From BD2-11 clade cluster bacterium bin43 (GTDB lineage Bacteria > Gemmatimonadota > Gemmatimonadetes > Longimicrobiales > Gaopeijiaceae), in the NCBI GenBank assembly GCA_002238605.1, contig MPMR01000003.1, positions 124,001 to 188,000 of the forward strand: a DNA stretch of 64,000 nt, given 5' to 3'. The position numbers and the translations under genes are program-made. Under the pieces are notes generated by a model. That model did not search any database and had not been told where the DNA came from. It saw only the letters and a list, made by a program, of their open reading frames with translations. Below are positions 3,920 to 35,544 of the stretch, one piece after another (positions within the stretch are counted from its first letter, which is position 1; each line of letters opens with the position of its first letter).

Positions 3920-5023
3920 TCACCGTACGACGTTGATCATGTCGAAGATCGGAAGGTACATCGAGACGATCATTCCCCCCACCACGATGCCCAGAAGGGT
4001 AACCATCGCCGGCTCGAACGCCGCCAGCAGCGCCTCTGCCGCGCGGCCGACCTCGTCGTCGTAGAAGTCGGCGACCTTCGCCAGCATCCGGTCCAGACCG
4101 CCGGTCTGCTCGCCGACGTGGATCATCTGCAGAACCATGGGCGGGAAGACCCCGGATGCCCGGAGGGGCTCGGCGATGGTGTTCCCCCCCGCGATCGATC
4201 TCCGGGCGTTCATGACGGCGTCGTGCACCACCCGGTTCCCCGAGCCTGCGGCGGTGATCTCCAGCGCCTCCAGAATCGCCACGCCGGAGGCCGCCAGAGT
4301 GCCCAGCGTCCGGGTGAAGCGGGCCATCTCCATCTTCAGACACAGCCGACCGACGACCGGAAAAGCCAGGAGCAGGCGGTCCAGCGCCAGGCGGCCGCGC
4401 GGGGTGGCGCGGACGCGCACCAGTCCGATCCACGCACCGCCGGCGAAGAGGGGTGGAAGCCACCAGTATGCCCGCAGGCTCTCGGAGAGACCGATCACCA
4501 GCCGGGTGGGCAGCGGCAAGGGAAGCTCCGACGCGGCGAACATCTCCTGAAAGGTCGGGATCACGAACTCGAGGAGGACCAGCAGGGAGCACGCGGCCAC
4601 CGCCACCACCACCGCCGGGTAGATCAGGGCGCCGCGCATCTTGCGCGAGAGGCGGTCGGTCCTTTCGAGCGCGTCCGCGAGGCGCGCCAGCACCGTATCC
4701 AGCACGCCCCCCGCCTCCCCGGCGGCTACCATGCTGACGAACAGGTGATTGAACACTGCGGGATGCTCACCCAGCGCGCCGGCCAGCGTTCGGCCTGCCT
4801 CCAGATCGCTGCGCACGTCACCCACCACTGCCGCCAGCCTCCGGTTGCCGGCCTGTTCCGCGAGCACGCCAAGACTCGGCGCCAGGGGCAGGCCGGACTG
4901 GATCATGGTGGCGAACTGGCGCGCGAACACCGCGATGTCCCGCAGGGGCACCCGCTCCCTGAGCCGTGACGGGATCCGCCGCCACCCGGCCCGGGCGGCC
5001 CGGCGCCGGTGCGTTCGATACAC
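3920..5023 (-). CDS. pilC: Type IV pilus inner-membrane platform protein PilC (T2SS F family)
   Basis: Polytopic platform protein that couples the pilus motor ATPases to pilin movement. It contains two T2SSF domains: the first begins around residue 20 (FARQFATMIQSGLPL), the second around 220 (MARFTRTLGTLAASGVAILEALE), each followed by hydrophobic helices, with the end GGMIVSMYLPIFDMINVV. The chosen GTG start (367 residues) lies 8 bases after the pilT stop. A longer open frame reaches 5269, but that part overlaps pilT and encodes low-complexity sequence, so it was rejected. No PilB assembly ATPase gene is present in the window. Confidence 0.9.
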   Translation of the reverse strand: MYRTHRRRAARAGWRRIPSRLRERVPLRDIAVFARQFATMIQSGLPLAPSLGVLAEQAGNRRLAAVVGDVRSDLEAGRTLAGALGEHPAVFNHLFVSMVAAGEAGGVLDTVLARLADALERTDRLSRKMRGALIYPAVVVAVAACSLLVLLEFVIPTFQEMFAASELPLPLPTRLVIGLSESLRAYWWLPPLFAGGAWIGLVRVRATPRGRLALDRLLLAFPVVGRLCLKMEMARFTRTLGTLAASGVAILEALEITAAGSGNRVVHDAVMNARRSIAGGNTIAEPLRASGVFPPMVLQMIHVGEQTGGLDRMLAKVADFYDDEVGRAAEALLAAFEPAMVTLLGIVVGGMIVSMYLPIFDMINVVR

Positions 5024-5031
5024 CCGGCGAC

Positions 5032-6183
5032 CTAGGGCTGCCAGGGGGACCGCGAGTCGCCGAGCGACTGCAGCAGCTCCGCCGGGTCGGGGGAGCACCT
5101 GATCGCGGCATCCGTGGAGACCTCGCCGCGCATGCGCAACCGCCGCAGAGCGTCGTTCATGGTCTGCATTCCATGCTTTCTTCCCGCCTGCATCATCGAG
5201 GGAATCTGGTGGACCTTGCAGTCGCGGATGGCGGCGCGCACCGCCGGCGTGCAGATCAGGACCTCGCACGCCGCAACCCTCCCCCGCCCGCGCTCACGCG
5301 GCAGCAGGCTCTGGGTCATCACGCCTTCCAGCACCAGGGCCAGCTGGGCGCGAACCTGCGCCTGCCGGCCGGACGCAAAGACGTCGATGATGCGGTGGAC
5401 GGAGGCCGCAGCTGAATTGGTGTGGAGGGTGGCCAGCACCAGATGCCCGGTCTCCGCAATCGTCAGCGCCGCCGAGATGGTCTCGGGATCCCGCATCTCG
5501 CCGATGAGGATGACATCCGGGTCCTGCCGGGTCGCCGACCTGAGGGCGGCTGCGAAGCTCATCGTGTCCGAGCCCACCTCGCGCTGACTTACGACGCAGC
5601 CTCGGGACCGGTGAACGAACTCCACCGGGTCTTCGATGGTGATGATGTGGCCCTTTCGGGTCTCGTTGATCCGGTTGAGCATGGCGGCCAGCGTCGTCGA
5701 TTTCCCGGAACCTGTGGGCCCGGTAACCAGCACCAGGCCATGGGGCCGCTCCACCAGGCGCCTCACCACGCCCGGCAGGCGCAGGTCCTCGAGCCGGGGG
5801 ATCTCGTGGGGAATTCTGCGCAGCGCCATGGCGGGCCGCCCGCGCCGTCGATAGCAGCTGCAGCGAAAGCGCGCGAGGTCTCCCAGATCGAATGCAAAAT
5901 CTACCTCGCGCCCCGACGCAAGCCGCTCCCTGCGGGCCTGCGTAAGCATCGAGTCAACCAGTTCCGCCGCCTCACGCGGAGCAAGCGCACTGCCGTGGCG
6001 TGCGTCGGCGAGCGCGCCGTCGATGCGAAGCCTGGGGGGCATCCCGGCCGCGACGTGCAGGTCGGACGCGTCCCTCTCCACCATCTCCTCCAGCAGCGCG
6101 CGCAGCGTTGATGGAGGGAATCCGGGCCCGCCGGCGATCGGATCCGATGCGCGTTCCGGAAACGCCGCAGCCGTGTCGGTCAC
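5032..6183 (-). CDS. pilT: Type IV pilus retraction ATPase PilT
   Basis: Hexameric cytoplasmic ATPase that depolymerises the pilus and powers retraction, twitching and DNA uptake. Visible elements: N-terminal RDASDLHVAAG (37-47), Walker A GPTGSGKS (155-162), Asp box TIEDPVEF (182-189), Walker B DVILIGEMRD (223-232) and His box ATLHTN (251-256). At 383 residues it has the normal length. The start codon is GTG and overlaps the TGA of the helix-hairpin-helix gene (GTGA), which indicates translational coupling. The PilT and PilU paralogues cannot be separated by eye. Confidence 0.95.
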   Translation of the reverse strand: MTDTAAAFPERASDPIAGGPGFPPSTLRALLEEMVERDASDLHVAAGMPPRLRIDGALADARHGSALAPREAAELVDSMLTQARRERLASGREVDFAFDLGDLARFRCSCYRRRGRPAMALRRIPHEIPRLEDLRLPGVVRRLVERPHGLVLVTGPTGSGKSTTLAAMLNRINETRKGHIITIEDPVEFVHRSRGCVVSQREVGSDTMSFAAALRSATRQDPDVILIGEMRDPETISAALTIAETGHLVLATLHTNSAAASVHRIIDVFASGRQAQVRAQLALVLEGVMTQSLLPRERGRGRVAACEVLICTPAVRAAIRDCKVHQIPSMMQAGRKHGMQTMNDALRRLRMRGEVSTDAAIRCSPDPAELLQSLGDSRSPWQP

Positions 6184-6857
6184 TGTCGCACGAAGAAGCG
6201 GCCGCGCATGGACTCGAGCGTGGCCGGCCCGATCCCGCGCACCTCGATCAGGTCTTCGACCCGCGCAAAGCCACCCACTTCGTCACGGCGCGCGATGATC
6301 CGGGCCGCGAGCGCAGGACCGATGCCACGTACCTGCTCGAGCTCGCCGGCGGTGGCTCCGTTGAGGTCGATGGGACCCGCCGCCCGCTGGTTCGCGGATG
6401 AAGCGGCGCCGGCCGTCCGAGGTGTCGTGGCGGCTGCGCGCCGGGCCCGGCCTCCTCCGCCACCGCGCTCGAGCGTCAGAAGCGGCGCGAGCCTCTCCAC
6501 CGTCGCCGGCCCGATCCCGCGCACCCGAGTGAGCGCCCCGACATCCGCGAAAGGACCGTCCGCGCTCCGTGACTCGACGATCGCCCGGGCCGCCGCCGGC
6601 CCGATGCCGGGCAGCCGGTCGAGCTCCTCCTCGCTCGCAACGTTCGGGTCCAGGCGCTCACCCGGGGCCAGCGGGGCCGACCGCCGCTCCTCCTCTTCGA
6701 CCATCTCCTGCGAATCGGCCGCCAGCTCCTGCGCCGAGACGGTGTCGGCCTCGAGGGCGAGCGGAGGCCGGGCGGCTTCCAGCCCCGCCCGCGCGGCCCC
6801 CGCCAGAAAGAGGACGGCGGCTGTGATCGCCAGGGTGCGTGACTCGTCGCGTGTCAT
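6180..6857 (-). CDS. Membrane-anchored double helix-hairpin-helix protein, ComEA-like
   Basis: A 225-residue protein with an N-terminal hydrophobic segment (8-26), an acidic linker, then two ComEA-type helix-hairpin-helix modules (about 69-126 and 162-220). Each module contains two GIGPA-type hairpins that bind the DNA backbone without sequence specificity; they are joined by an Arg/Ala-rich linker. ComEA normally carries one module (two hairpins) and acts as the periplasmic DNA receptor in transformation. The direct overlap with pilT supports a role in pilus-driven DNA uptake. The start ATG was chosen because the longer open frame upstream overlaps the sprA-like gene. Confidence 0.85.
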   Translation of the reverse strand: MTRDESRTLAITAAVLFLAGAARAGLEAARPPLALEADTVSAQELAADSQEMVEEEERRSAPLAPGERLDPNVASEEELDRLPGIGPAAARAIVESRSADGPFADVGALTRVRGIGPATVERLAPLLTLERGGGGGRARRAAATTPRTAGAASSANQRAAGPIDLNGATAGELEQVRGIGPALAARIIARRDEVGGFARVEDLIEVRGIGPATLESMRGRFFVRQ

Positions 6858-6985: not shown

Positions 6986-9900
6986 TCAGGGAAGTCCGGC
7001 AAAGCCTCCCGCGTTGTAGACGAACTGGCCCCAGAAGCCGATCTGAAACTGGGTCGAGCCCAGCCGCTGGCCGATGTTCGACTGACGGTTGGTGTAGCTG
7101 GCCTGAAAGCCGATCTGAAGCTCGGAGACGACGGTGTCCAGCGTGAGGTTGAAGGTTGCGTTGCTCTGGTCCACGAAGGGCACGCACTCGTCGTTGCCGG
7201 AGGTGATGCGACAGTCGCTCTGCCCCGCCTGATTGTACCGCAGCGACGCCTGGATCGGGCGTTCCAGGCGTGCCCCCAACTCGCCCGGAGGCGTGAAGCT
7301 GCCGCTCATGGTGAAGACGTGGGTGTTGCGGCGTCGGCGCGTGTCGCCGGTGGGATCGGTGCCCTCGCCCCGGGTCATGGTGGTGCGGTAGCTGGACGAA
7401 AAGCCGCCTCCCCAGCGAACCGACACGTCGAGCGGGATGGTCGCGTCCTCCTGCAGCCGCTGCTGCTGAGCACCGGTTCCGAACGAGAGCCGGCGGGTGT
7501 CGACGCGGTATCCCGAGTTCACGGTGAGGCGCTCGACCACCGGTTGCACGAAGGGCGGCAAGGGGATCGACGACGCCCTCAGGACCAGGTTGGGCCAGCT
7601 GCGGGTATTCGACGCGCGGTCGCTGCGCGTGTCGAACGTTGCGATGTCGGTGACCGAGTAGTCCACGTTCGCGGTGATCCCGGGAAGGAGCGTGAGCCCC
7701 GAACCCATGGCCCAGCCGTTCCGGTCGACGAGGGTGGCCGCGGTGGTCCCGTCGACCACCCGGAACCCCTCCAGGTCGTTCAGCCCGAACTGATAGCGGA
7801 CGTCCGGGTCCAGCACCTCGCGGTTGAAGCGCGAGGTGATGCCGTCCTGCCAGTTGACCGTAAAGGGCGAGAACGCACCGGCGATCCGGCGCATCGTCCC
7901 CTGGGGGGGAGCGTCGGTCGCGCCCGGTCTCGCGGGCCCGCCCCGGGCGAGCGTCCCCGGGTCGAAGATGACGGAAGCGCTTGCGCTCCGCTGGCCGCCC
8001 ACGTTGCGCTGCAGGTCCCGCAGGGTGTCGGCCTCCACTATCTGGCGCCGCACCAGGGTGGCGTTGCGGTCGGAGTTGTAGGTGGTCGTCCAGGTGAGCG
8101 TCCACTGCAGCCAGTCGGCGGGCCGGGGGCCCCAGCGCATGTTGGTGCGCAGCCGCCGATTCGTTTCCCAGCCCAGATCGACGCCTCCCGGTGACCACCG
8201 CTCCCGCGCCAGCAGCGGCCGCACCGCCGGATCCCTGACCGCGAGGTCCGGAGCCAGCAGGTCGCGGGTGGAAGTGAAATCGGTGGTGGCGGTCACGGAC
8301 TCGAAGGGACGGAAGATGACGCGCGCATCGGTGTCCAGGCCTCGCCGGGGAGAGCGCGTGCGGGTCGCGCTCGAATCGGCGGGCAGGCGCAGAATCTGCT
8401 CGTAGCGCAGGGTCTGGTTGCGCTGGTTGGCGTAGGAGGCCCCGAACCCGATGCGCTCCGGGCTCCAGCGCAGCCGGCTCGCCAGCACCCGCTCCTCCAG
8501 CGATTCCGGAAGCAGAGCGCGCACCACATCCCCGAGGAAACCCGGAACGACCGGCAGCGTGCGCGGCTCCAGCGCCCGGTCGTAGCCTACCCGCGCATCC
8601 ACCACGCGCGAGTCCGACTCCGAGGTCGCCGTCGCCGACTGCGACGACGAGTACCCGGCGCGCGCGCTCAGGCCGTCCAGGAAGATCGCGGCCCACGGGT
8701 TGGCGGAGGGCGTCCGCTTGCGGAACGACACGCCCACGCGGGTCCGGTCGAAGGCGACCTTGCGGAGCCCTTCGAGCCGGTCCGCGCGGATATCGCTCCT
8801 CAGCAGGAAGGTGGGATCCTGCCCGGAACTGGTATGCGACACGTTCAGCGGCAGCTCGATTCCCCAGGAGGCGGGGGTGAAGCGGCTCAGCTGCAGCGTC
8901 GAGTTCGCCGTCCACTGCTGGTCGCGCTGGTAGCTGGGATCGCCCTCGAGCTGGCGGAAGAGGGCGCCCCGGTCGGAAACCGAAACGCGCGTGGTCATGA
9001 AGTCGGACGCGTTCAGGTCCAGGTTCAGGTGGCTGGCGAGTCCGCGGTCGGTCACGGCGTTGGAAAGACGGAAATCGTTGACCCACACCTCGCCGTCGTC
9101 GGGGAAATGGCCCTCGTTCCATACCCCCAGCGAGAGCTCGCGGACCTGCGAAAGGTTGGGGGCGCGCGCCCGGTCCTGAAGCACCACTGCATAGGTCGAG
9201 TCGGCGCTCCATACCACCAGCGCCGGCGCGCCCGCGGGCGGGGGGTCCTCGATCAGCCGCCGCTCGGCCTCGCTGCGCAGCTCAAGCCAGCGATTGAAGT
9301 CCACCAGAATCTCCGGGAGCCAGTCCTCACCCCGAATGCCGTCGGGATCCACCGCCGGCTCCAGCCGCGTCCGGTACAGATAGAAGTTGTCCTCGTCGCT
9401 CCCCACCTTCAGGAAGAAAAACGTGGGACGGTCCATCCCCCAGTCGCCGCTGCGCGCCAGCGCCCAGATGCGCGCCTGCCTGTAGGTGAGGAAGTTCCTG
9501 GGGCGCTGCGGAAAGCGGTGATACACCTCCGTCCTCTCCCCGGGGGGAAGCCCCCTGTAGGTGAGGCCAAGCGCCTTCTCGCTGAACTCCACGCCCTGTG
9601 CACCCAGAGCGATCGTGGGATCGTCGAGCTGTTCCACCACGCCGGGAGGCGGGTGGTAGGCGGCGCCCACCTCGACCGCGCCCACCGGGCTCACCTCGAT
9701 GGTGCCGCCGGTCCCCGGATCGTCTCCCGCCATGCCCGTGAGCACCCCCTCGCCCGCACGCTTCACCCAGCGCGAGCCCACCAGGCGCATGCGCGCCAGC
9801 ACCGCCGCGCCTTCGGCGTTCCCGGTGACCGTGAGGCGCAGGTGCTTGACGGCGCGGAAATCCCCGTCGTTGAACATCCCTCCCGGATTGATCGCCCGTG

Positions 9901-12900
9901 GCCCGCGCAGGGGAATCCGGTAGAGACGGAAGAGGGTTCCGGTGCCGGTGGTGTCGCGCACCAGGTAGGGGGAGGATCCGTCGAGTTCCACCAGGTAGCG
10001 CATGTAGCGCTCGTCGATGTCCAGATTGCCGTCCCCGTCCAGGTCTTCCGAGTCCGGACGTCCGTTGCCGCGGGTGCAGTTTACCCGGGGGTCGCCGATG
10101 CGGTAGACCACCGCCCGGGTCGCCAGGCACGCCTCGTCCCACAGCCCGCGCTGGTCGAGCTCGTCGCTCCAGATCTCGCCCCTGCGGGGGTCGGCTTCCT
10201 GGTCCAGGGCGCCCAGCCCCCACGCGTCCCCGCCCTCGCGGGTGCCGCCGGTAAGCCCGTTCCCGTCCACGAACAGCGCGTCCTCGCTCACCGTCCCCAG
10301 ATCGAAGACGAGGGTGAGCGCCTCGCCCCCCGCGATGTAGAGGTCGAGAAACTCGGTGCGCGTCAGGTCGAGGCCGGTGCTCGCGAGATTGGCAGTGATC
10401 GAGCGCCAGCGCCTGCGGTCGAAGTTGCCCCCGGCGGCGCCGTCGCCGACCCCGAACGTGAGCAGCAGCCCCGGCTCGCGGAACTCGTTGCCGGCGACGT
10501 TGATCTGCCGGTCGATGTCGTTGCGGGGGAGAAAGCCTTCGAAGACGCCCGTGCTGTCCCCGCTCTCCCCCTCCGTGATCCAGGTGTGCTGCCACTGAAG
10601 GGAGGCGATGTCGCCCGGCCCGAGCTCCGGCGGAAGCGCCTCGAGCGCCCCGTCCCGGAACAGCGGAGCGCTACCCAGGCGCCAGCCCGTGCTCAGGTTG
10701 GAGAGCGGCAGGTCGCTCGTGGAATCGAAGTCGTGCAGGTAGACGTCTCCCTCGATGTTCGGGCTGGGGAGGGAGAGGGCCATCTCGCCGTTCAGGCGCA
10801 GCCGCGATATGCCCGAGTGCGTCAGCCCCGGGATCCGGTCCAGCGCCCGGTCCAGCGCCGGCAGTTCCATGTCCATGCGCCCGTTCAGGCCGCCCAGGAG
10901 GATCGAAGCCGGCTCGACGCCGAGCTGAGGCCGCCGCAGGAGCCCCTTCTCGCGCTGGTACAGCCCCAGGAAGTTGAGTTCACCGACTTCCCCGAGCGCG
11001 TAGCCGGCGTTCATTCCGAAGACCGAGGTCGGGGCGATCTGAAAAAGCGCCTGCTGCTCCCAGGTGGCCCGCAGGTCTCCCTGCGGGTCGGTGGCGAAGA
11101 GGGTCTCCGCGTCGAGCAGCTGCACCTGTCCCATGTCGTAGTCGATGACGTAGTCGGTGCGCGCTTCGAGCGCGCGATCGCCGAAGAAGAGGCGCTCGCT
11201 GCCGTCACGGATGCCGAGCGCGCCCAGCGAGAAGGAGGAGATGAGCCCTTCGCTGCGCACGCGGAAGGGAATGGTGAGCCAGTAGAGCCCGGCGTTCTCA
11301 CGCTCGTAGGGATCGACCGCGTCGTAGATCTCGGGGTTGGCGTCCCCCGCCAGGATCTCGGAGGTCTCTTCGGCCGAAAGCCCCAGGGAATACACCGGGG
11401 GAGGCTCGGCGAAGGGCCGGAGGGTCGGGAAGACGATGAAGGTGCCCGAGACCGCGGGCTGCTCCTCGAAGTCGTCGGCGGCGGGCTTGTAGACGTAGGC
11501 GCGGTCGACGACGTCCACGGGGGACTCCTCGTCCAGCCCCAGGAGCTTCAGATAGGTGATGTCCTCCCCGCCGAGGCCCCGGGTGAAGGTCCTTCCCGCG
11601 CTCAGCTCGCCGACGGAGATGTCGAGCGAGACCGACGGGATCTCGACGTCGTTGGAGCCCGACACCCGGTAGACCTGGTGCATCTCCAGGTCCCAGGTGG
11701 GCCGGCCCGGCTGGTGGTTGGGTTCAGAGGCGCGCAGCAGCGAAAGACGGGGACGCCCTCCCTCGTTGTGAATGCGCTCCGGGTTGTAGTCGCCGATGGT
11801 GTCGCCGGCCGCGGTGACGTAGGTCACCGCCAGCATCTCGTCGCGGCGCAGCGGGCTCCGCAGTGCGATCCACAGGCCGCTCGGGTGGACGAAGTAGTCG
11901 ACGCCCGCCTGCAGGTAACGGAACCAACCGGACTCCGTCACCGTGTCCTCTCCGAGCGTGGCCGAGGCATCGGCCTGGATGTAGCCCTCCACCTGCTGGC
12001 GGGTGACGGGGTCGTTCTCGAAGCGGTAGAGCTGGATCGGTTCCGCCCCGGGGATCGCGGAGGAGGGCACCGTGCCGGGATCCGCCCCAAGGACGTCGAT
12101 GTGCGGGTAGTCGAAGAGGTTGCGCGGGTCGGCGAGGAAGAAGAACTGGCCACGCACGTAGTCGGCGTTATCGACCACGATGGTGTCCTCCTGGACGAAG
12201 GCGCGGTCGGTGCCCGCGCCCGCCAGGCGGAATTCCCGCGAGGACAGGTCGCCCCGCTGTTGCGCGAACACGGTCTCGAAGTCCAGCGGGCCCAGCTGGC
12301 CGGTGGCCCGCAGCCCGAAGTTGCCGGCCGGAATGCCCTCCGTCAGGAAGCGCGACTCCGGCAGCCCGAAGGTCACGTCCCCGACCTCGACGCCCTGGAG
12401 AATCTCGTCCTCCACTCCCTGATAGAAGACGTTGATGTTGTTGGTGGCGGAGAACTCGCGGGTCTGGTCGTAGTCGACGTTCACCACGATCCGTTCCGAG
12501 ATCGTGCCGCCCATCTGGACGCCGAACTGGAGTTCGGGCACGAGGCGGGGCAGGAGCCCCGGCTGGCACCCCAGCTGGATGCCGGCGTCACAGGGACGAA
12601 AGCGGGTCCAGTCGCCCCCGAACTCACCCCTGCCCCGGATGCGCACGTCCAGGTCCTGGAGCTCGATCGGCCCGGCCCCGGGGATGACGGCCGCCTCCGG
12701 CTCGGGAGGGAGTTCGGGGAGGAAGCCCACCGGCCCGGCGTCCGGCTCGTCCTCTTCCCGGGAAGGACGCGTGATTCTTCCCGCCAGGGACGCGCCCGGC
12801 CGAAGGAGCGACGCGGCGCCGGGGCCCGGCGGCCCGAGCACTGCGGGCCGCAACCACGGCGAGTCGGCGCCCGGCACGGGCTCGAACGCGACCGGGAAGA

Positions 12901-13147
12901 GGAGGGAGACGCGCGCCAGCCCGAGGGGGACCAGCACGGGCGGGGGGAGGGGCGCGGAGGCCAGCGGGCGCGGAGGCGGGAAAAGCCCCCGCCATTCCAC
13001 CGCGTCCGGCCCCGCAGCCTGGGCGGCGGCCGCCGCCGGCGTGAGCAGCCCGCACGCCAGCAGCGCCGCGGCAGCCCGCCGCGTCAGCCGGCCGGGACCA
13101 CGGGCCCGCGGCCGGTGTACGGTGCGAGTTGAGGGAGGCTCGCTCAA
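6986..13147 (-). CDS. sprA: SprA/Sov-like giant outer-membrane protein (type 9 secretion translocon family)
   Basis: A 2053-residue protein with an N-terminal signal-like segment (about 22-43) and a long beta-rich body ending in an aromatic strand (QFQIGFWGQFVYNAGG). The segment near residues 205-290 (VNVDYDQTREF, NNINVFYQGVEDEILQGVEV, GDVTFGLPES, then LDFETVFAQQRG) follows the conserved N-terminal pattern of SprA, the barrel through which Bacteroidota export type 9 substrates. It is somewhat shorter than typical SprA (about 2400 residues). The start is taken as TTG, only 24 bases from the divergent lptF start, and is uncertain. No PorV, GldK-N or other type 9 parts occur in the window. Confidence 0.85.
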   Translation of the reverse strand: MSEPPSTRTVHRPRARGPGRLTRRAAAALLACGLLTPAAAAAQAAGPDAVEWRGLFPPPRPLASAPLPPPVLVPLGLARVSLLFPVAFEPVPGADSPWLRPAVLGPPGPGAASLLRPGASLAGRITRPSREEDEPDAGPVGFLPELPPEPEAAVIPGAGPIELQDLDVRIRGRGEFGGDWTRFRPCDAGIQLGCQPGLLPRLVPELQFGVQMGGTISERIVVNVDYDQTREFSATNNINVFYQGVEDEILQGVEVGDVTFGLPESRFLTEGIPAGNFGLRATGQLGPLDFETVFAQQRGDLSSREFRLAGAGTDRAFVQEDTIVVDNADYVRGQFFFLADPRNLFDYPHIDVLGADPGTVPSSAIPGAEPIQLYRFENDPVTRQQVEGYIQADASATLGEDTVTESGWFRYLQAGVDYFVHPSGLWIALRSPLRRDEMLAVTYVTAAGDTIGDYNPERIHNEGGRPRLSLLRASEPNHQPGRPTWDLEMHQVYRVSGSNDVEIPSVSLDISVGELSAGRTFTRGLGGEDITYLKLLGLDEESPVDVVDRAYVYKPAADDFEEQPAVSGTFIVFPTLRPFAEPPPVYSLGLSAEETSEILAGDANPEIYDAVDPYERENAGLYWLTIPFRVRSEGLISSFSLGALGIRDGSERLFFGDRALEARTDYVIDYDMGQVQLLDAETLFATDPQGDLRATWEQQALFQIAPTSVFGMNAGYALGEVGELNFLGLYQREKGLLRRPQLGVEPASILLGGLNGRMDMELPALDRALDRIPGLTHSGISRLRLNGEMALSLPSPNIEGDVYLHDFDSTSDLPLSNLSTGWRLGSAPLFRDGALEALPPELGPGDIASLQWQHTWITEGESGDSTGVFEGFLPRNDIDRQINVAGNEFREPGLLLTFGVGDGAAGGNFDRRRWRSITANLASTGLDLTRTEFLDLYIAGGEALTLVFDLGTVSEDALFVDGNGLTGGTREGGDAWGLGALDQEADPRRGEIWSDELDQRGLWDEACLATRAVVYRIGDPRVNCTRGNGRPDSEDLDGDGNLDIDERYMRYLVELDGSSPYLVRDTTGTGTLFRLYRIPLRGPRAINPGGMFNDGDFRAVKHLRLTVTGNAEGAAVLARMRLVGSRWVKRAGEGVLTGMAGDDPGTGGTIEVSPVGAVEVGAAYHPPPGVVEQLDDPTIALGAQGVEFSEKALGLTYRGLPPGERTEVYHRFPQRPRNFLTYRQARIWALARSGDWGMDRPTFFFLKVGSDEDNFYLYRTRLEPAVDPDGIRGEDWLPEILVDFNRWLELRSEAERRLIEDPPPAGAPALVVWSADSTYAVVLQDRARAPNLSQVRELSLGVWNEGHFPDDGEVWVNDFRLSNAVTDRGLASHLNLDLNASDFMTTRVSVSDRGALFRQLEGDPSYQRDQQWTANSTLQLSRFTPASWGIELPLNVSHTSSGQDPTFLLRSDIRADRLEGLRKVAFDRTRVGVSFRKRTPSANPWAAIFLDGLSARAGYSSSQSATATSESDSRVVDARVGYDRALEPRTLPVVPGFLGDVVRALLPESLEERVLASRLRWSPERIGFGASYANQRNQTLRYEQILRLPADSSATRTRSPRRGLDTDARVIFRPFESVTATTDFTSTRDLLAPDLAVRDPAVRPLLARERWSPGGVDLGWETNRRLRTNMRWGPRPADWLQWTLTWTTTYNSDRNATLVRRQIVEADTLRDLQRNVGGQRSASASVIFDPGTLARGGPARPGATDAPPQGTMRRIAGAFSPFTVNWQDGITSRFNREVLDPDVRYQFGLNDLEGFRVVDGTTAATLVDRNGWAMGSGLTLLPGITANVDYSVTDIATFDTRSDRASNTRSWPNLVLRASSIPLPPFVQPVVERLTVNSGYRVDTRRLSFGTGAQQQRLQEDATIPLDVSVRWGGGFSSSYRTTMTRGEGTDPTGDTRRRRNTHVFTMSGSFTPPGELGARLERPIQASLRYNQAGQSDCRITSGNDECVPFVDQSNATFNLTLDTVVSELQIGFQASYTNRQSNIGQRLGSTQFQIGFWGQFVYNAGGFAGLP

Positions 13148-13171: not shown

Positions 13172-14596
13172 ATGAACATTCTCACGCGCTATCTGATCCG
13201 GGCGCACGTGGCGCCGTTCTTCTTCTCGCTCACTGTGCTCACCGGCCTCTTCTTCCTCAATCTGGTCGCCCTGCGGATGGGCGCGCTGATGGGCAAGGGA
13301 CTGCCGTGGCAGGTCTATGCGGAGTTCATGCTTCTCTCGCTCCCTCACACGCTCGCGCTCACCATTCCGATGTCGGTGCTCGTGGCCGTGCTCTACGCCT
13401 TCTCGGAACTCACGGAGGCCAACGAGATCACCGCGATGTCCGCCGGCGGCGTGCGCCCCGCGCGGATTCTGGTTCCCCTGCTCACCGCGGGCACAATCAC
13501 GGCCGCCCTGGTCTTCGTGCTGCACGACCGCGTGCTCCCCGAATCCAATCATCGCCTCAAGAACCTCATGGTCGACGTCCAGGGAAAGAGCCCCACGTTC
13601 CGCCTGCGCGAGCAGGTGATCAACGAGATCCAGGCCGTCAACGGCGCCACCCGCTACTTCCTGCAGGCACACAGCATCGATCCGCTGACCAATGAACTCG
13701 AGGATGTCACCATCTTCGACGTTAGCGAATACGACCAATATCGCACCATCTATGCCAACCGGGGCACGATGGCGTTCGACGAGAGCGGCACCGATCTCTT
13801 TCTGACGCTCTTCGACGGCCACGCCTACGAGGTGAGCGACATGCGGCCGTCCGGCTTCCGGCAGCTGGCCTTCGCCAGACAGATCATCCCCATGCGCGGA
13901 ATCGCGGACGTGCTGGAGCGCAGCGACAGCGAACAGCGCGGGGACCGGGAGATGTCCACGGCCATGCTCGCGGAGGAGGTGCGCAAGGCCCGCGAAGAGC
14001 TGGCTGAGGTGCGGAGCGCCAGCCTCGCGCGCTCACGGGGCGCGATGCGCGAAGCCCTGGGACTCGAGGCGGTCGAGGGAGCGGAGATCGACGATCTGCT
14101 GCCCCCCGGAGCGCTCGAAAGCCAGCGCCGCATCATCGGCGACCTGGGGCTGACCCCGCCGGACCAGCTTACGGAGGCGATCGCCGCCAACCTGCGCACC
14201 AACGCCGTGCGCGAGGAAGGGCTCCTGCTCGCCGAGAACCGGTATCGCGTGGAGTTCCACAAGAAGTGGGCGATCGCCACCGCGTGCTTCATCTTCGTGC
14301 TCGTGGGGGCCCCTCTGGCGATCCGCTTTCCCCGGGGCGGGCTCGGCACCGTGATCGTGCTCTCCGGCGGCATCTTCGCCATCTACTGGACGACGCTGAT
14401 CGGGGGCGAGTCGCTCGCCGACCGGGGCCATCTGGAGCCGAACGTAGCCATGTGGATCTCGAACGTCATCTTCCTGGTCGCCGGCATCCGGCTGGCCTCG
14501 CGCATGGGACGCGCCGTCTCCGCGCCTCGAGATTCGGGCCAGGGCGGCATCCGGCGACTGCTGGTCAACCGGTTCGGCGGGAGCGCGGACGCATGA
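13172..14596 (+). CDS. lptF: LPS export permease LptF
   Basis: One of the two inner-membrane permease subunits of the LptB2FG transporter, which extracts lipopolysaccharide and passes it to the periplasmic bridge. The N-terminus (MNILTRYLIRAHVAPFFFS) and the coupling-helix area near SELTEANEITAMSAGGV are characteristic. There are three N-terminal membrane helices, a large periplasmic beta-jellyroll region (about 110-350, with a charged insertion around 250-330) and three C-terminal helices. It overlaps lptG by four bases (ATGA), so the two are translated together. Transcription diverges from the sprA-like gene. Confidence 0.92.
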   Translation: MNILTRYLIRAHVAPFFFSLTVLTGLFFLNLVALRMGALMGKGLPWQVYAEFMLLSLPHTLALTIPMSVLVAVLYAFSELTEANEITAMSAGGVRPARILVPLLTAGTITAALVFVLHDRVLPESNHRLKNLMVDVQGKSPTFRLREQVINEIQAVNGATRYFLQAHSIDPLTNELEDVTIFDVSEYDQYRTIYANRGTMAFDESGTDLFLTLFDGHAYEVSDMRPSGFRQLAFARQIIPMRGIADVLERSDSEQRGDREMSTAMLAEEVRKAREELAEVRSASLARSRGAMREALGLEAVEGAEIDDLLPPGALESQRRIIGDLGLTPPDQLTEAIAANLRTNAVREEGLLLAENRYRVEFHKKWAIATACFIFVLVGAPLAIRFPRGGLGTVIVLSGGIFAIYWTTLIGGESLADRGHLEPNVAMWISNVIFLVAGIRLASRMGRAVSAPRDSGQGGIRRLLVNRFGGSADA

Positions 14597-15705
14597 GGCT
14601 CCTCGACCGCCTCGTCGCGACCAGTTTCCTCCGCATCTTCGTGGCCTTCGTGGCCGCCGTGCCCCTCCTGTTCGTGATCGGCGACCTCACCGAGAACATC
14701 GACGAGTACCTCGACCGAGGGCTCCCGATGGCGGAGGTCCTGCGGGCCTACGGATTCCAGATGCTCCAGTTCGTGTTCTGGTCCTTTCCGATGGCGACCC
14801 TGATCGGGGCCGTCTTCACCATTCACGCCATGACCGTGCACCGGGAGATCGTGGCCGCCAAGGCGGGCGGCATCTCCTTCCATCGGCTGGCGGTGCCGGT
14901 GCTGGCCCTGGGCGTCGCGCTCGCCGGGGTGTCGTTCTACATCAGCGACATCGTGCCCCGCGCCAATCGCGCCGCCTTCGACATCCTCGAGGAACGCAAC
15001 TTCAGCCGGGACTGGCGCATCAACTTCGTGTACCAGACCGAGGAGGGGCACAGCCTTTCCGTGCGGCGCCTGACCGTGATGGCCGGCGAGCTGCAGGAAG
15101 TGGTGCTGGAGCACCGCCCGGTTACCGCGGAGCCCGGCTCGGGACCCTCCCTGCACGCGGTCGCGGACCGTGCCTATTTCAATGACGAGTCGGGCTGGAC
15201 CTTCAGCGACGGCTACGTGCGACGCCTGCTCCCGGATGCCCGCGAACAGACCTATCGGTTCGGCAGCATGAAGACGCGCGGGTTCTCGGAACGTCCGGAC
15301 GAGCTGCTCGAGGCATCCCGCTCCGGCAACCGCATGTCCGACGCCCAGAACGACCGCCTGGCCCAGATGACGCGCGCGGACATCGACCGGCAGGTGGGGA
15401 TCATCGAGCGCAGCGGGGGAAGCGCCTCCGAGTACCTCGTCGAGCGCGAACAGCGCAGCGCGCTCGCCCTCGCCACGTTCGTCATGGTCCTCTTCGGCCT
15501 GCCCCTCGGGACCTCCTCCCAGCGCGGGAGCGCGGCCTACGGCGCCGGCGTGTCGATCGCCTCCATCACCCTGTACCTGATCCTCTTCCGGGTTCTGGGG
15601 GCGGCGGCGGGCGCAGGGGTCTTCTCACCCACCCTCGCGGCGTGGACCCCCAACGCCGTGTTCCTGGCGATGGGCGCGTTTCTGATGTTTCGCGTGCGAA
15701 CGTAG
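14593..15705 (+). CDS. lptG: LPS export permease LptG
   Basis: Partner permease of LptF in the lipopolysaccharide exporter. The 370-residue product starts MRLLDRLVATSFLRIF and has three N-terminal membrane helices, a coupling motif near TVHREIVAAKAGGISF, a periplasmic beta domain and three C-terminal helices. The ATG overlaps the lptF stop, which fixes the start; a longer open frame upstream lies wholly inside lptF. The last codons overlap a short tandem repeat and a terminator-like hairpin follows. Confidence 0.92.
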   Translation: MRLLDRLVATSFLRIFVAFVAAVPLLFVIGDLTENIDEYLDRGLPMAEVLRAYGFQMLQFVFWSFPMATLIGAVFTIHAMTVHREIVAAKAGGISFHRLAVPVLALGVALAGVSFYISDIVPRANRAAFDILEERNFSRDWRINFVYQTEEGHSLSVRRLTVMAGELQEVVLEHRPVTAEPGSGPSLHAVADRAYFNDESGWTFSDGYVRRLLPDAREQTYRFGSMKTRGFSERPDELLEASRSGNRMSDAQNDRLAQMTRADIDRQVGIIERSGGSASEYLVEREQRSALALATFVMVLFGLPLGTSSQRGSAAYGAGVSIASITLYLILFRVLGAAAGAGVFSPTLAAWTPNAVFLAMGAFLMFRVRT

Positions 15706-27850: not shown

Positions 27851-30800
27851 CTATCGAAAAATCTCTCCCAACCCATAGCTCAGCCTCCGTGCGCTCTCGC
27901 TCCCCGCACGCACAAACGCGTCGAGAATACCAATCAGGTGTCGCCGAGCCGTCTCGTCGCGCCTGAAGAGATCACGGTGGTCGGCCAGGTACCGATCAAC
28001 GATTCGAACGATCACTTTCTCCGCCAGCGTGTCGTACTCATAGCCTCCTTTCCGTCCCCCCCGGATAACACGTGCGATTCGAAAAAACACCCCACGTGGA
28101 TTCACCGGGACAAGAACCTCGAGCGCTTCCAGCAGGTGGTGGCTTAACTGCGGGAGACCCACGTCGGCCAACTCGTCGACAACCTCACCCGATTCGCAGT
28201 AGAAGCGTCGGAGCACCGTCTCGTTGGGAGGCTCATCGCCTCCCTTAGCGCCCGAGGCGAAGTAGATGTTCCAGCCAACCGAGTCGAGCAGGTGCGCAAG
28301 GCTCTTCATCTGTTCTTCGGTGGGCGGTTCTTGTGTGACGTCAACAGTATTTCCTTCAGGGATCACCCCACGGCGGAATTCTGCAGCCGCTCCCTTCGTG
28401 ACCCGGAGGAGGAAGCTCCAACTCCGTCGTCGGGCCGCATCTGAATCGGGATCTGGAGGATCAACCGCGCCAGTCACGAGGATCCCGCGGAATTCGGAAA
28501 CCAATTGGCTCACCTCGTCCAAGTGAGCGACAGGATCAGCAGCAATCCCGTCGATAACGGCAGACGCGGCAGCATCCCTGCCCCAGACGAAAAGGCCTGC
28601 GAGGACCTGCACACATGAATTGCTCAGCTCCTTTCGGTTGGGTGCATCCGCCACAGCCTGCATTATGCCGATCGTAATGCTGCCGACCCGCTCCGGCTCT
28701 CTGAACCTCAGAAAGCTGAGCGGATCGACCAACCCTCGCATGACCCCGATACTGCGGTCGCGGGCCATCTGCTCAATCATCCTCCACATCCACTCCGGGT
28801 CACGGGCATACCGAAACATCAACCGGCAGGCGATCTGGTATCGAACGCACGGCGCGGGATCGGCAATCAATCGCTCCACGGCGGCAAGAATATCCGAATC
28901 GTCGCAGGAAGAATGCCGGAGGATTGTCATCAGACCCGCAGCCGCTTCGACACGGGCAGCCGGGCTACCCCACATGGGATCTACGAAGCGCTCGTCCGCG
29001 TCACTCTCGACGGTCGGGACCCGGTTCTCGCTTGCCTCCAGTAGCACGGCCCGCACGAGTGCGCCCACCCCTTCGTCGCAACGAAGGCCCTCCATCTTCG
29101 CAATGGCACCGCACGCCCCCGCCAGTTCCCCCCAAGCGTAGTCTGACTGCTTCTCGTGAACACCGTCCGCATCAGACGATTGAAGAGCCGCGTACAGCCG
29201 TCGTAGGTGTGGGAGCGCGTTCGCCGCTTCCTGGGGTTCAGGAGCCGTGTTGGCGTGAGCTTGCGCAAACTCATTTATCGGCCCCTCCAGCTCCCGAAGA
29301 CGCCTGTTCGCTTCCTCCTCTACCGGCACTCCCGCTTCGGCCAGGTACTCCACCTCCCCGAAAACACGGCTGCCGAATTGGAACTTGATGCCGTCTTCGT
29401 TTTCTGGCACCGCGTCCGCAGCACGCAACACAGATAGACGCGTCCGGGCTTCCTCGGTCGCGACTCCGCCCTCTGGTAGACAACCAAGCAAGCGATCGCG
29501 TGCGTGCTCGGCCGAACGGCGCCGATCAGGCGTCGCTACTTCTGGAATGGAAAGAATGGCGCGTTCGATCCGCTCCCGGTCAGCTTCGCACAGATCGAGA
29601 AAGAGGGCGGCGATCATCCCTCCGACCTTCCCGGTCGTATCTGGACACCTGAGTACGGGGAGTGACCACGCGGCGGCACGGAGCTTCAACCCAATCTGGT
29701 CTGGATAGCGAGCTCCCAATCCGAGAAGCCGCCGCCACACGACCGCCAGCCGGCATGTCTGAACAAGAGTGTCCAGCAGGTGATGTAGCTTCGCTGCGCC
29801 CCCCCGCTGGTCGGCGACCTCCTCCAACCGCTGCTGCACGCAACCCAACAACTGGATTGCATCCTGGTCGGGGTATCCTTGTCCCCGGTCCCAAACATGA
29901 CTGAAATCGAGCAATAGACGAGCGCGTTTCCCATCAAGATCGAATTCGGCAGCATCCTCTTCGGGAAGCGAGCGTTCGCGGGTGACGTAGAACTCCATGG
30001 CGACATTCATCGCCTCCACGGCTTCCGCTGGCGCCGCACGCAGGAACGCCGGGAATGATTGGACCAGTTGGTAGAGCGCACTCTGGTAGTCCTGGCGGCG
30101 ATTTGACGTCAACGACAGGACTCCGCGTCGCATGGCCGTCGGCGACTCGGACGTTTCGCTGTATCCGAAAGCGGCTCGATAGGTATCCCTGACCAAGCCT
30201 GGATCGTGGGCCGTTAGCGAGGTTACCGCGTCGGCGAGCACGCTCAACTCCTCGCTACCGTGCTGCGCAAGGTGGTCGGGTTGGATGGCTCGCCGCACGA
30301 GTTCGGCAGATGCTCTTACGTCGGTCCCAAAGGTTCGGCAAACGACTCGTATGGCCTGCGCTACAAGCCGGGGATCCCTCTGCTCTTGAGTCCACGCAAA
30401 TGCAAGCAGCCGTCGACTAGCCGTACCCAACTGGTCAGCCTGCTTGCCAGAGAGTTGATCGAGTCGCGGTACTAGATCCCACAAGATCCAAGACGCTGGG
30501 TATGCGGTCCCGGTAGTGAATCTGTCGCTGAGTCGCTGCGCTAGATCACAACACAAGTCGGCGACCTCAGCCGGAGAACCACGGTCCGCGAGAAGCGCGT
30601 GAACGACGTGCACCAGCGCATTCTCAGCTGACGCTCGAACCGCGTCATCGATCTCCTCAAGAGCCTTCAGGAGGGGCACGAAGTCCTGAATCGTCACCCC
30701 AGTCTCAGCGGCCACGGCGGGTCCGATCAGCTTTCCGATCTCCGGAATCCTGGCGGAACGGCAAACGGCCAAAGTGGACTCCCAGAAGTCCTCACGTGCC

Positions 30801-32785
30801 TGCCCACCTGAGTCGCGGCCCCAGAGATGATGGAAGTGCATTACCACACTTGGCCTCCCGAGCAAGACGAACGCGCGGTCCGATGCGAGAACGCCGGCCA
30901 TGTGGCTGGCACTACGCCGAAGCATCAGCCGCGCAACGGCGTAGTCAAAGAGGACATGGTGCGCGAACGCCAGCGTAGACCACTGCGGAGCGTCAACGAT
31001 CACTTGCGCTGAGAGGAGGTCGCGGATCGCTGGAGCTGCCGCGGCCTCGGTCACGACCAGGTCCTGGTCCACATGCAGAACTCGCTCCTGGACCATTGCC
31101 TTCACTGCCCTACGCAGAACAACCTCCCGCGATAAAGCCTCATGCTCGCCGCCATCCCGCACCACACGTTCCCGCCAATAGAGGTCGAGCAGGTCCAGTT
31201 GGCTCCCCACATCCCGAATCGCCTGCGGATCCGTTCCACCATCCAACAACTCGGCTGCAAGCCGAAGATTGAATGGGTTGCGAAGGAGTTCGGCGATCGC
31301 TCCTGAAGCCGATTTGAGAAGACGTGCGAGCTCCGGAGCGCCACGTTCGCCAATCTGTTGCAGTTCTTCGTCACTCAGCTGTCCGACCACGACATGGCGC
31401 ACTTCGGCGAGTGATTCGCCACCCAGCGCAGGCACAGGACCATCGGGCGGCGTGCCCTTGAAGATTTCAGCCAGAGCCGGGCTGTAACGGGCATCGTACT
31501 CACGCATCGACGCGAGGACGTTCCAATGATTCGCGCGTTCACCCACTTCTCGGATCAAAGTCCTGAGAGCCGCAGCAGATCTGTCCCCCCGGGCTGCGTC
31601 CAATGCGTCGACAAGCAGGAATGCGGGTCGCGCTCCTGGCCAGTTTCTGAGAACATCCACTACATCGTGGCTGAGTCGTAGCTCGTCTCGCAGGCCTCCT
31701 GGGCTCGAGAACGGCGGCTGTTCCGCCGCCAGCAAGACTACCTCACGGTTCTCCTTGCGCAGCGTCTCCGCCAAGGAGTACAGCACACCCGATTTCCCCG
31801 CCCCGGGCTCGCCGACCACAAGAAGGGGACCAGTTTCGGCAGCCTCTTTCAGGTAAGGGAGATAGGGACGCTGGATCCGCAAAACGGTCCGCCCCAATCT
31901 AATGGACGCGTGTCTCGCCAAACGACTAACGACCCGCGAACTGTGATCCTTCAGTCGCTGGATGTCTCTCCGATAACTTCTTGGGGCGCGCACACTTACT
32001 TCGGCCGAGTGTAACAGTCCAAGCAGAGTGGTCCGATCGGCGTGACCCCGCGCTGCGATAAGCCGCAAGCTCTCGGTGACCAACACTGACCATGCGACCG
32101 CAGCTTGGTCGGGAGTGTCGAGTACGCTCGCCCGCAGTATGCCCTTTGCCGCTAGCTCGTCCTTCTCTCCCGCGCCTACCTCGATCGTCTCGACGTGAAG
32201 ACGGCTAAGGAGCTTGCGGATGTCGTCATCGCAAGGCTTCGATCCAGTTACCGTTTCCCAGGATGCCCGAGCGTGCTGGACGACAACCTCCAACGCCTCC
32301 CTGCGGTTCTTGTCGAGCCCCTCGCTGGGCATCTCGGTACCCGGATGGCTCCGTACGCGCTCGATTGCCGCGCGGAGATGAACTCGGATTGTTGCGGGAG
32401 CGGCGGCACCCACCGCCAGCACGAAGCGGTCATGTGCGGCGCTTGAAGGGTCCTCGCGGTCTCCCGCTGTGGTACTACCCTCCAGCAACTGTCGAACGAA
32501 CTGGTCCAACGCCGAAGCAAGTGCGCTGCTACGACCGTGCGTTAGGGAAACGGTCGTTTTCACTTGCACGAACGCCTTGCACCCGGCGTCCGTTACAAGG
32601 ATTAGATCATCGACGGGCGCGGAGGTCTCACAGGCGATTCCAGCCACAGACCCCCGCAGCCCGAATGGCGCTTCTGCGTCTTGTTCGGCAAGCACGTGAA
32701 CGGCGGCCCAAGCACTTACTCGCGCCTGGTATTCGACGCCGCCTCCCGCCGCCGCACCCCCCGCGCTTGGGCGCCTAGCGACCAT
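27851..32785 (-). CDS. Predicted Cap4-like nuclease fused to a STAND NTPase (Avs-like defence protein)
   Basis: A 1644-residue cytoplasmic protein. Residues about 16-105 look like a DUF4297/Cap4-type PD-(D/E)xK nuclease: YQ at 19-20, Glu53, Asp59/60 in PVDDLILVTD, and QVK at 74-76. A P-loop follows: Walker A GEPGAGKS (325-332) and Walker B FLLVDALD (389-396), the STAND type of signalling NTPase. The remaining ~1000 residues are Leu- and Ala-rich and look like helical repeats, as in the sensor part of Avs proteins. Less GC-rich than flanking genes. It lies 102 bases downstream of the GIY-YIG gene on the same strand. The nuclease call is by motif and moderately sure; the NTPase is firm. Confidence 0.8.
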   Translation of the reverse strand: MVARRPSAGGAAAGGGVEYQARVSAWAAVHVLAEQDAEAPFGLRGSVAGIACETSAPVDDLILVTDAGCKAFVQVKTTVSLTHGRSSALASALDQFVRQLLEGSTTAGDREDPSSAAHDRFVLAVGAAAPATIRVHLRAAIERVRSHPGTEMPSEGLDKNRREALEVVVQHARASWETVTGSKPCDDDIRKLLSRLHVETIEVGAGEKDELAAKGILRASVLDTPDQAAVAWSVLVTESLRLIAARGHADRTTLLGLLHSAEVSVRAPRSYRRDIQRLKDHSSRVVSRLARHASIRLGRTVLRIQRPYLPYLKEAAETGPLLVVGEPGAGKSGVLYSLAETLRKENREVVLLAAEQPPFSSPGGLRDELRLSHDVVDVLRNWPGARPAFLLVDALDAARGDRSAAALRTLIREVGERANHWNVLASMREYDARYSPALAEIFKGTPPDGPVPALGGESLAEVRHVVVGQLSDEELQQIGERGAPELARLLKSASGAIAELLRNPFNLRLAAELLDGGTDPQAIRDVGSQLDLLDLYWRERVVRDGGEHEALSREVVLRRAVKAMVQERVLHVDQDLVVTEAAAAPAIRDLLSAQVIVDAPQWSTLAFAHHVLFDYAVARLMLRRSASHMAGVLASDRAFVLLGRPSVVMHFHHLWGRDSGGQAREDFWESTLAVCRSARIPEIGKLIGPAVAAETGVTIQDFVPLLKALEEIDDAVRASAENALVHVVHALLADRGSPAEVADLCCDLAQRLSDRFTTGTAYPASWILWDLVPRLDQLSGKQADQLGTASRRLLAFAWTQEQRDPRLVAQAIRVVCRTFGTDVRASAELVRRAIQPDHLAQHGSEELSVLADAVTSLTAHDPGLVRDTYRAAFGYSETSESPTAMRRGVLSLTSNRRQDYQSALYQLVQSFPAFLRAAPAEAVEAMNVAMEFYVTRERSLPEEDAAEFDLDGKRARLLLDFSHVWDRGQGYPDQDAIQLLGCVQQRLEEVADQRGGAAKLHHLLDTLVQTCRLAVVWRRLLGLGARYPDQIGLKLRAAAWSLPVLRCPDTTGKVGGMIAALFLDLCEADRERIERAILSIPEVATPDRRRSAEHARDRLLGCLPEGGVATEEARTRLSVLRAADAVPENEDGIKFQFGSRVFGEVEYLAEAGVPVEEEANRRLRELEGPINEFAQAHANTAPEPQEAANALPHLRRLYAALQSSDADGVHEKQSDYAWGELAGACGAIAKMEGLRCDEGVGALVRAVLLEASENRVPTVESDADERFVDPMWGSPAARVEAAAGLMTILRHSSCDDSDILAAVERLIADPAPCVRYQIACRLMFRYARDPEWMWRMIEQMARDRSIGVMRGLVDPLSFLRFREPERVGSITIGIMQAVADAPNRKELSNSCVQVLAGLFVWGRDAAASAVIDGIAADPVAHLDEVSQLVSEFRGILVTGAVDPPDPDSDAARRRSWSFLLRVTKGAAAEFRRGVIPEGNTVDVTQEPPTEEQMKSLAHLLDSVGWNIYFASGAKGGDEPPNETVLRRFYCESGEVVDELADVGLPQLSHHLLEALEVLVPVNPRGVFFRIARVIRGGRKGGYEYDTLAEKVIVRIVDRYLADHRDLFRRDETARRHLIGILDAFVRAGSESARRLSYGLGEIFR

Positions 32786-35420: not shown

Positions 35421-35544
35421 CTGGCCACTCTGCCTCGCCGACCGTGAATTGCCGGTCGGACACCGGAAGTGTACCTTCGCTCACCCACGCACGGCCCGTC
35501 CCGCCCCGAAGAACACTCGCACTCTAATCGCGCCGAATGGCTCT

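What the first reader, a model, noticed from the sequence alone, without database searches (positions are those of the whole stretch)
6986..13147. SprA-like translocon outside a Bacteroidota-type gene set
The N-terminal signature matches SprA, yet the neighbours are pilus and lipopolysaccharide export genes and no other type 9 component is in view. It would be informative for the origin and spread of type 9 secretion, or mark a derived barrel with another job.
Basis: partly seen in the sequence, partly recalled or inferred. Interest (0 to 1): 0.6.

Follow-up and report, generated by a model that had tools for sequence, protein, structure and literature searches.

The report
Type 9 translocon SprA in Gemmatimonadota
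The gene is a true SprA, the outer-membrane gate of the type 9 protein secretion system, inherited vertically throughout the bacterial phylum Gemmatimonadota; its carrier and a tagged cargo protein lie elsewhere in the genome, but none of the Bacteroidota motor parts could be found.

Summary
The ORF at 6986-13147 (-) is a genuine SprA: 476.6 bits to TIGR04189, cut-off 200. The genome is Gemmatimonadota. SprA occurs in 144 of 200 sampled genomes of the phylum; its tree recovers every family as one group, so it looks ancestral, not imported. 'No other type 9 component' holds for the window, not the genome: about 65 kb away on the same contig a PorV-family barrel lies 33 bp behind a 1363-aa secreted protein. 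That protein's C-terminal domain has a predicted fold best matched by the sorting domains of PorZ and PorU; the PorV model best matches PorV solved with SprA. A second PorV over cut-off follows era. Strong PorV hits track SprA: 115/144 genomes with it, 0/56 without. PorU is absent from the window's genome by its model; GldK, GldL, GldM and GldN gave no match over cut-off, but no positive-control genome was available. Best reading: a reduced type 9 system in which a cargo is paired with its own PorV-type carrier. T9SS had already been suggested for this phylum; the pairing and the unseen motor are what is new, and unproven.

The parts
6986..13147 (-). sprA, T9SS outer-membrane translocon SprA/Sov, 2053 aa, with signal peptide (predicted cleavage AAA|Q)
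   Evidence: TIGR04189 476.6 bits vs 200; SprA_N 60.3 vs 27; 6h3i E 1.9e-31
13172..14596 (+). lptF, LPS export permease, divergent neighbour of sprA; conserved neighbour, not claimed as part of the secretion system
   Evidence: PF03739 263 bits; found beside sprA in 58 of 61 named loci
14602..15705 (+). lptG, LPS export permease; conserved neighbour
   Evidence: PF03739 203 bits; 58 of 61
6180..6857 (-). ComEA-like helix-hairpin-helix protein, 225 aa, directly 3' of sprA; conserved neighbour
   Evidence: HHH_3 135.6 bits; 27 of 35 loci
5032..6183 (-). pilT-type ATPase; conserved neighbour
   Evidence: T2SSE 166 bits; 25 of 35 loci
3920..5125 (-). pilC, pilus inner-membrane protein (ORF to 5269; coding start nearer 5125 is approximate); conserved neighbour
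   Evidence: T2SSF 200 bits; 26 of 35 loci

Best explanation
The gene encodes the SprA translocon of a reduced type 9 secretion system that looks ancestral to Gemmatimonadota. Inferred working: a Sec-exported cargo carrying a C-terminal immunoglobulin-like sorting domain enters the SprA pore from the periplasm; a PorV-family barrel docked at SprA's lateral opening binds that domain; the carrier-cargo pair leaves sideways and stays at the surface. In the window's genome one cargo has its own PorV encoded directly behind it, as Type B substrates are paired with SprF-like shuttles in Flavobacterium, although the domain resembles Type A domains. No sortase PorU is seen, so the cargo is probably not cleaved but held on its carrier. 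Shown here: identity of SprA, PorV family and CTD fold, linkage and co-occurrence. Inferred: transport, pairing, anchoring. Energy source unknown.
For: SprA far over cut-off. PorV family in the own genome: C37:61266-62270 110.9 bits and C3:32204-33022 100.7 bits, cut-off 90, plus C24 59 bits. PorV model: top PDB matches are PorV of the SprA complexes, 8gl6_F Z 33.6 and 6h3i_F Z 32.9, above FadL 30.9. Cargo: 1363-aa ORF 33 bp upstream of PorV; its last ~105 aa have homologues at the very C-terminus of the ORF upstream of PorV in 14 other loci and match the PorU C-terminus of the f10 genomes at E about 1e-17. CTD model (pLDDT 76): seven strands, top PDB matches PorZ CTD Z 9.8 and PorU CTD Z 9.6, then NucA, RemA, RemZ and RgpB CTDs among the rows. 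Near-C-terminal Lys/Arg (G-K/R-F/M) kept in all 15, as in Type A CTDs (PMC10994853). Co-occurrence: PorV E<1e-25 in 115/144 SprA+ and 0/56 SprA- genomes. SprA tree: all families single groups.
Against: TIGR04183 is not met by the cargo CTD (15.9 bits vs 23) and finds nothing in the genome. The PorV equivalog model NF033710 is not met (21 and 30 bits vs 250). Only two CTD hits in the genome, one a small protein also present in SprA- genomes. About half of the SprA+ genomes tested lack a strong CTD cargo, so their substrates are unidentified. No GldK/L/M/N found. The co-occurrence count does not correct for shared ancestry. FadL-type barrels score nearly as high as PorV.
Confidence: 0.75

Rival explanations
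1. A complete, ordinary type 9 system is present, and its motor and ring (GldK-N/PorK-N) are simply too diverged for the Bacteroidota models.
For: No positive-control genome could be searched with the GldM and GldN models; the tool says 'nothing rang anywhere'. SprA, PorV and CTD are all strongly diverged here. The motor is required in Flavobacterium (PMC10994853, PMC12635249). FGE-domain proteins similar to GldK exist.
Against: In the f10 genomes PorU scores 580-594 bits, well over its 420-bit cut-off, with 35-54 CTDs, yet GldL, GldM and GldN give no match there and GldK stays at 108 bits or less against 350.
Confidence: 0.45
2. SprA and PorV here are a derived pair with another job, for example lipid or pilus-related transport, as the pilus and LPS neighbours might suggest.
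For: Neighbourhood lptF-lptG / sprA / HHH-pilB-pilT-pilC is conserved across the class. PorV has the FadL fold.
Against: A CTD with the type 9 fold sits next to PorV in many SprA+ genomes; f10, whose sprA also keeps lptF/G and the HHH gene, has PorU and tens of CTDs. In the window genome pilB is not between the HHH gene and pilT.
Confidence: 0.1
3. Recent horizontal acquisition of sprA from Bacteroidota.
For: None beyond the phylum being outside Bacteroidota.
Against: Tree recovers all families as single groups, 7 changes for 8 groups, the minimum; conserved gene order; presence in 144/200 genomes.
Confidence: 0.03

Closest known systems
SprA (Flavobacterium johnsoniae) / Sov (Porphyromonas gingivalis), T9SS translocon, TIGR04189, PDB 6h3i/6h3j
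   Same: Full-length homology, over the equivalog cut-off, size about 2050 vs 2403 aa, PorV-family partner in the genome.
   Different: Other gene neighbours (LPS export and pilus genes); no detected PorU, GldK-N in the window's genome.
Type A CTD with PorV shuttle (TIGR04183; NucA, RemA, RemZ, RgpB, PorU, PorZ)
   Same: Extreme C-terminal seven-strand sandwich, Lys near the end, PorV-family carrier.
   Different: Below the TIGR04183 cut-off; each large cargo gene lies next to its own PorV rather than sharing one PorV.
Type B substrates with cognate PorP/SprF shuttles (PMC12618676)
   Same: Cargo gene directly followed by its shuttle gene.
   Different: Shuttle is PorV-family and the CTD fold is Type A-like.
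NCBIfam NF052325 'putative type IX sorting system protein PorV2'
   Same: Partial match, 57 bits over most of the protein.
   Different: Cut-off 325 not reached.

Membership tests
SprA/Sov translocon (TIGR04189) | Score over the equivalog cut-off of 200 bits | tested here: met
   476.6 bits
SprA/Sov translocon (TIGR04189) | 36-strand barrel with cap and lateral opening | not tested
   Protein exceeds the 1200-aa folding limit and both fold jobs went to the CTD and PorV; homology to 6h3i only
Type IX secretion system | PorV-family carrier in the genome | tested here: met
   NF033709 110.9 and 100.7 bits vs 90; fold best matches PorV, Z 33.6
Type IX secretion system | PorV equivalog NF033710 | tested here: not met
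   21.2 bits and 30 bits vs 250
Type IX secretion system | Cargo with Type A sorting domain by TIGR04183 | tested here: not met
   None at E<=0.01 in the genome; cargo CTD 15.9 bits vs 23
Type IX secretion system | C-terminal domain with the type 9 CTD fold | tested here: met
   PorZ CTD Z 9.8, PorU CTD Z 9.6; the fold is a common Ig-like one and model pLDDT is 76
Type IX secretion system | Sortase PorU (NF033707) | tested here: not met
   In the window's genome only a CTD-like 17-bit hit; cut-off 420 reached only in f10
Type IX secretion system | Motor and ring GldL, GldM, GldN, GldK | tested here: inconclusive
   No GldM, GldN match; GldL and GldK below cut-off everywhere; no positive-control genome available
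Type IX secretion system | SprE/PorW, SprT, SkpA, PPI, Plug | not tested
Type IX secretion system | SprA-dependent export of CTD proteins | not testable with these tools
   Needs an experiment

The most novel reading that the evidence does not exclude
Gemmatimonadota of the window's class run a type 9 translocon without the GldK-N/PorK-N motor and ring and without PorU, using PorV-type carriers each dedicated to one uncleaved surface cargo, with another energy source or none: a simpler, possibly older form of type 9 secretion.
Probability: 0.35. Interest if true: 0.8.

Novelty: new variant of a known kind. Interest (0 to 1): 0.5.

Why it matters
In Bacteroidota extraction of the carrier-cargo complex from SprA needs a rotary proton motor. 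A phylum where SprA, PorV and CTD cargo persist by descent but the motor is not seen would say that the translocon-carrier core came first and the motor was added, or that a different engine can drive it. It also gives a small, testable set (one SprA, one paired cargo, two or three PorVs) instead of dozens of substrates. If the motor is merely diverged, the finding is an ordinary but under-described branch of type 9 secretion.

Tried and rejected
Scan of genome contigs with a 22-row SprA alignment failed for lack of a conserved stretch; a 10-row alignment worked but returned only Gemmatimonadota-like records, so it says nothing about other phyla and gave no Bacteroidota control genome. The idea that the large ORF upstream of PorV is a diverged PorU was rejected: it matches PorU only over the C-terminal domain and has no C25 peptidase hit in Pfam. 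The small CTD-like protein at C46 was rejected as a specific marker, since SprA- genomes have it too. Pilus ATPases as the motor: only gene order supports it and pilB is missing from this operon in the window, so it is not proposed. Mantel correlation between CTD and PorV (r 0.93) was not used as proof of pairing, as shared ancestry gives the same. Horizontal transfer rejected. Papers with SprA and Gemmatimonad in the text gave no study of the system in this phylum.

Full report
What it is. The ORF at window 6986-13147 (-) encodes a 2053-aa protein that meets the NCBI equivalog model for the T9SS translocon SprA/Sov at 476.6 bits against a cut-off of 200, Pfam SprA_N, and finds the solved Flavobacterium SprA at E 1.9e-31.

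Whose genome. The window is G000:C37:124001-188000, a 4.47-Mb assembly, 97% complete. Records encoding a 93% identical SprA are sponge- or environment-type MAGs labelled Gemmatimonadetes (a few labelled Gammaproteobacteria, evidently misnamed), and the rest of the 80 best records are Gemmatimonadota. So the gene sits in Gemmatimonadota.

Distribution and history. In 200 genomes of the phylum TIGR04189 has a match in 144, over cut-off in 138. A tree of 22 SprAs groups every family represented by two or more rows as a single branch, with the class split from the deeper family f10. Together with gene order this indicates vertical descent from the phylum's ancestor, with repeated losses (for example in families f1, f3, f4, f5, f7).

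Neighbourhood. lptF and lptG lie head to head with sprA in 58 of 61 named loci with enough flank; the HHH gene, pilB, pilT and pilC follow it in 25 to 27 of 35 (also across families f1-f9, and lptF/G plus HHH in f10). The pilus and LPS-export genes are thus the normal setting in this phylum and need not mean a different function. In several families an M28 peptidase gene (PF04389), with motifs I read as glutaminyl-cyclase-like, lies between sprA and the HHH gene.

Other type 9 parts in the genome. PorV family model NF033709 finds C37:61266-62270 (110.9 bits), C3:32204-33022 (100.7) and C24:249433-249981 (59.3); cut-off 90. The C37 gene, about 68 kb from sprA, is preceded by a 1363-aa secreted protein (gap 33 bp) and that by a TonB-dependent receptor. 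The C3 gene follows era, and similar era-PorV order is seen in Gemmatimonas-type and other families.

The cargo domain. The last ~105 residues of the 1363-aa protein define a profile whose hits lie at the C-terminus of proteins encoded directly before PorV in many genomes and also match PorU C-termini in f10. TIGR04183 itself misses it (15.9 bits, cut-off 23), which is why a standard search finds no sorting domain. The predicted fold, pLDDT 76, has seven strands, and the best solved matches are the CTDs of PorZ and PorU, Z 9.8 and 9.6, with NucA, RemA, RemZ and RgpB CTDs further down. The Ig-like fold is common, so position, linkage and the PorU sequence match carry as much weight as Z. The PorV model, pLDDT 83, is closest to PorV of the SprA-substrate complexes, Z 33.6 and 32.9, slightly above FadL.

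Linkage of SprA and PorV. At E<1e-25, 115 of 144 SprA+ genomes and 0 of 56 SprA- genomes have PorV. The species are not independent, but SprA+ and SprA- genomes occur side by side in several families. In a 46-genome subset no SprA- genome has a CTD hit below 1e-25, whereas many SprA+ ones have. Half of the SprA+ genomes there lack a strong CTD hit; their cargo is unknown.

What is missing. PorU over cut-off occurs only in f10, where there are also 35-54 CTD hits per genome. GldM: 0 of 46. GldN: 0 of 20. GldL: none over cut-off, and the weak hits are no better than controls. GldK: only FGE-domain hits far below cut-off, as in Bacillus. I could not search a Bacteroidota genome as a positive control, so absence of the motor is not established.

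Mechanism. In Flavobacterium SprA passes the substrate to PorV at a lateral opening and a motor-driven energy chain pulls the pair off (PMC10994853, PMC12635249). Type A CTDs share one PorV; Type B substrates are followed by their own SprF-type shuttle (PMC12618676). The Gemmatimonadota arrangement combines a Type A-like domain with a dedicated PorV. With no PorU the simplest reading is that the cargo stays attached to its carrier at the surface. Transport, pairing and anchoring are inferred, not shown.

Known and new. A 2024 paper lists Gemmatimonadetes among phyla where T9SSs 'may also be present' (PMC11285876); a 2016 survey reported T9SS only in Bacteroidetes (PMC4793230). SprA here is thus a new member of a known family; the system is filed as a variant of type 9 secretion rather than a canonical one, because PorU and the standard PorV and CTD models were tested and not met.

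Noticed in passing
L059 6036-7004 (-), L055 11688-12584 (+), L052 12945-13868 (+): M28 peptidase-family lipoprotein, glutaminyl-cyclase-like by motif, directly 3' of sprA in several families; absent at that place in the window. Predicted secreted proteins of the window's genome often have Gln after the signal-peptidase site (SprA, PorV, cargo, an OMP), as in the Bacteroidota 'Q-rule'.
   Followed up: partly
L182 6989-9095: era followed by a PorV-family gene, an order also seen in other families of the phylum.
   Followed up: partly
L153 6958-7824 (-): Small secreted protein that is little more than a signal peptide and a CTD/FlgD-Ig-like domain, present with and without SprA across the phylum. 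Function unknown.
   Followed up: no
G001, G003, G007, G009 (family f10): Deep-branching Gemmatimonadota with PorU over cut-off, 35-54 CTDs and ten or more PorV genes, many next to a ~1100-aa CTD protein, but no GldL/M/N match.
   Followed up: partly
window 27851-32785 (-) and 35449-37476 (+): Likely defence island: full-length PDC-M54A (1510 bits, candidate defence protein) and a GmrSD type IV restriction enzyme, with lower GC3 than the rest of the window.
   Followed up: partly
L065, L068, L070, L131: Public MAGs labelled Gammaproteobacteria carry a 93-94% identical SprA and are evidently misnamed Gemmatimonadota.
   Followed up: no
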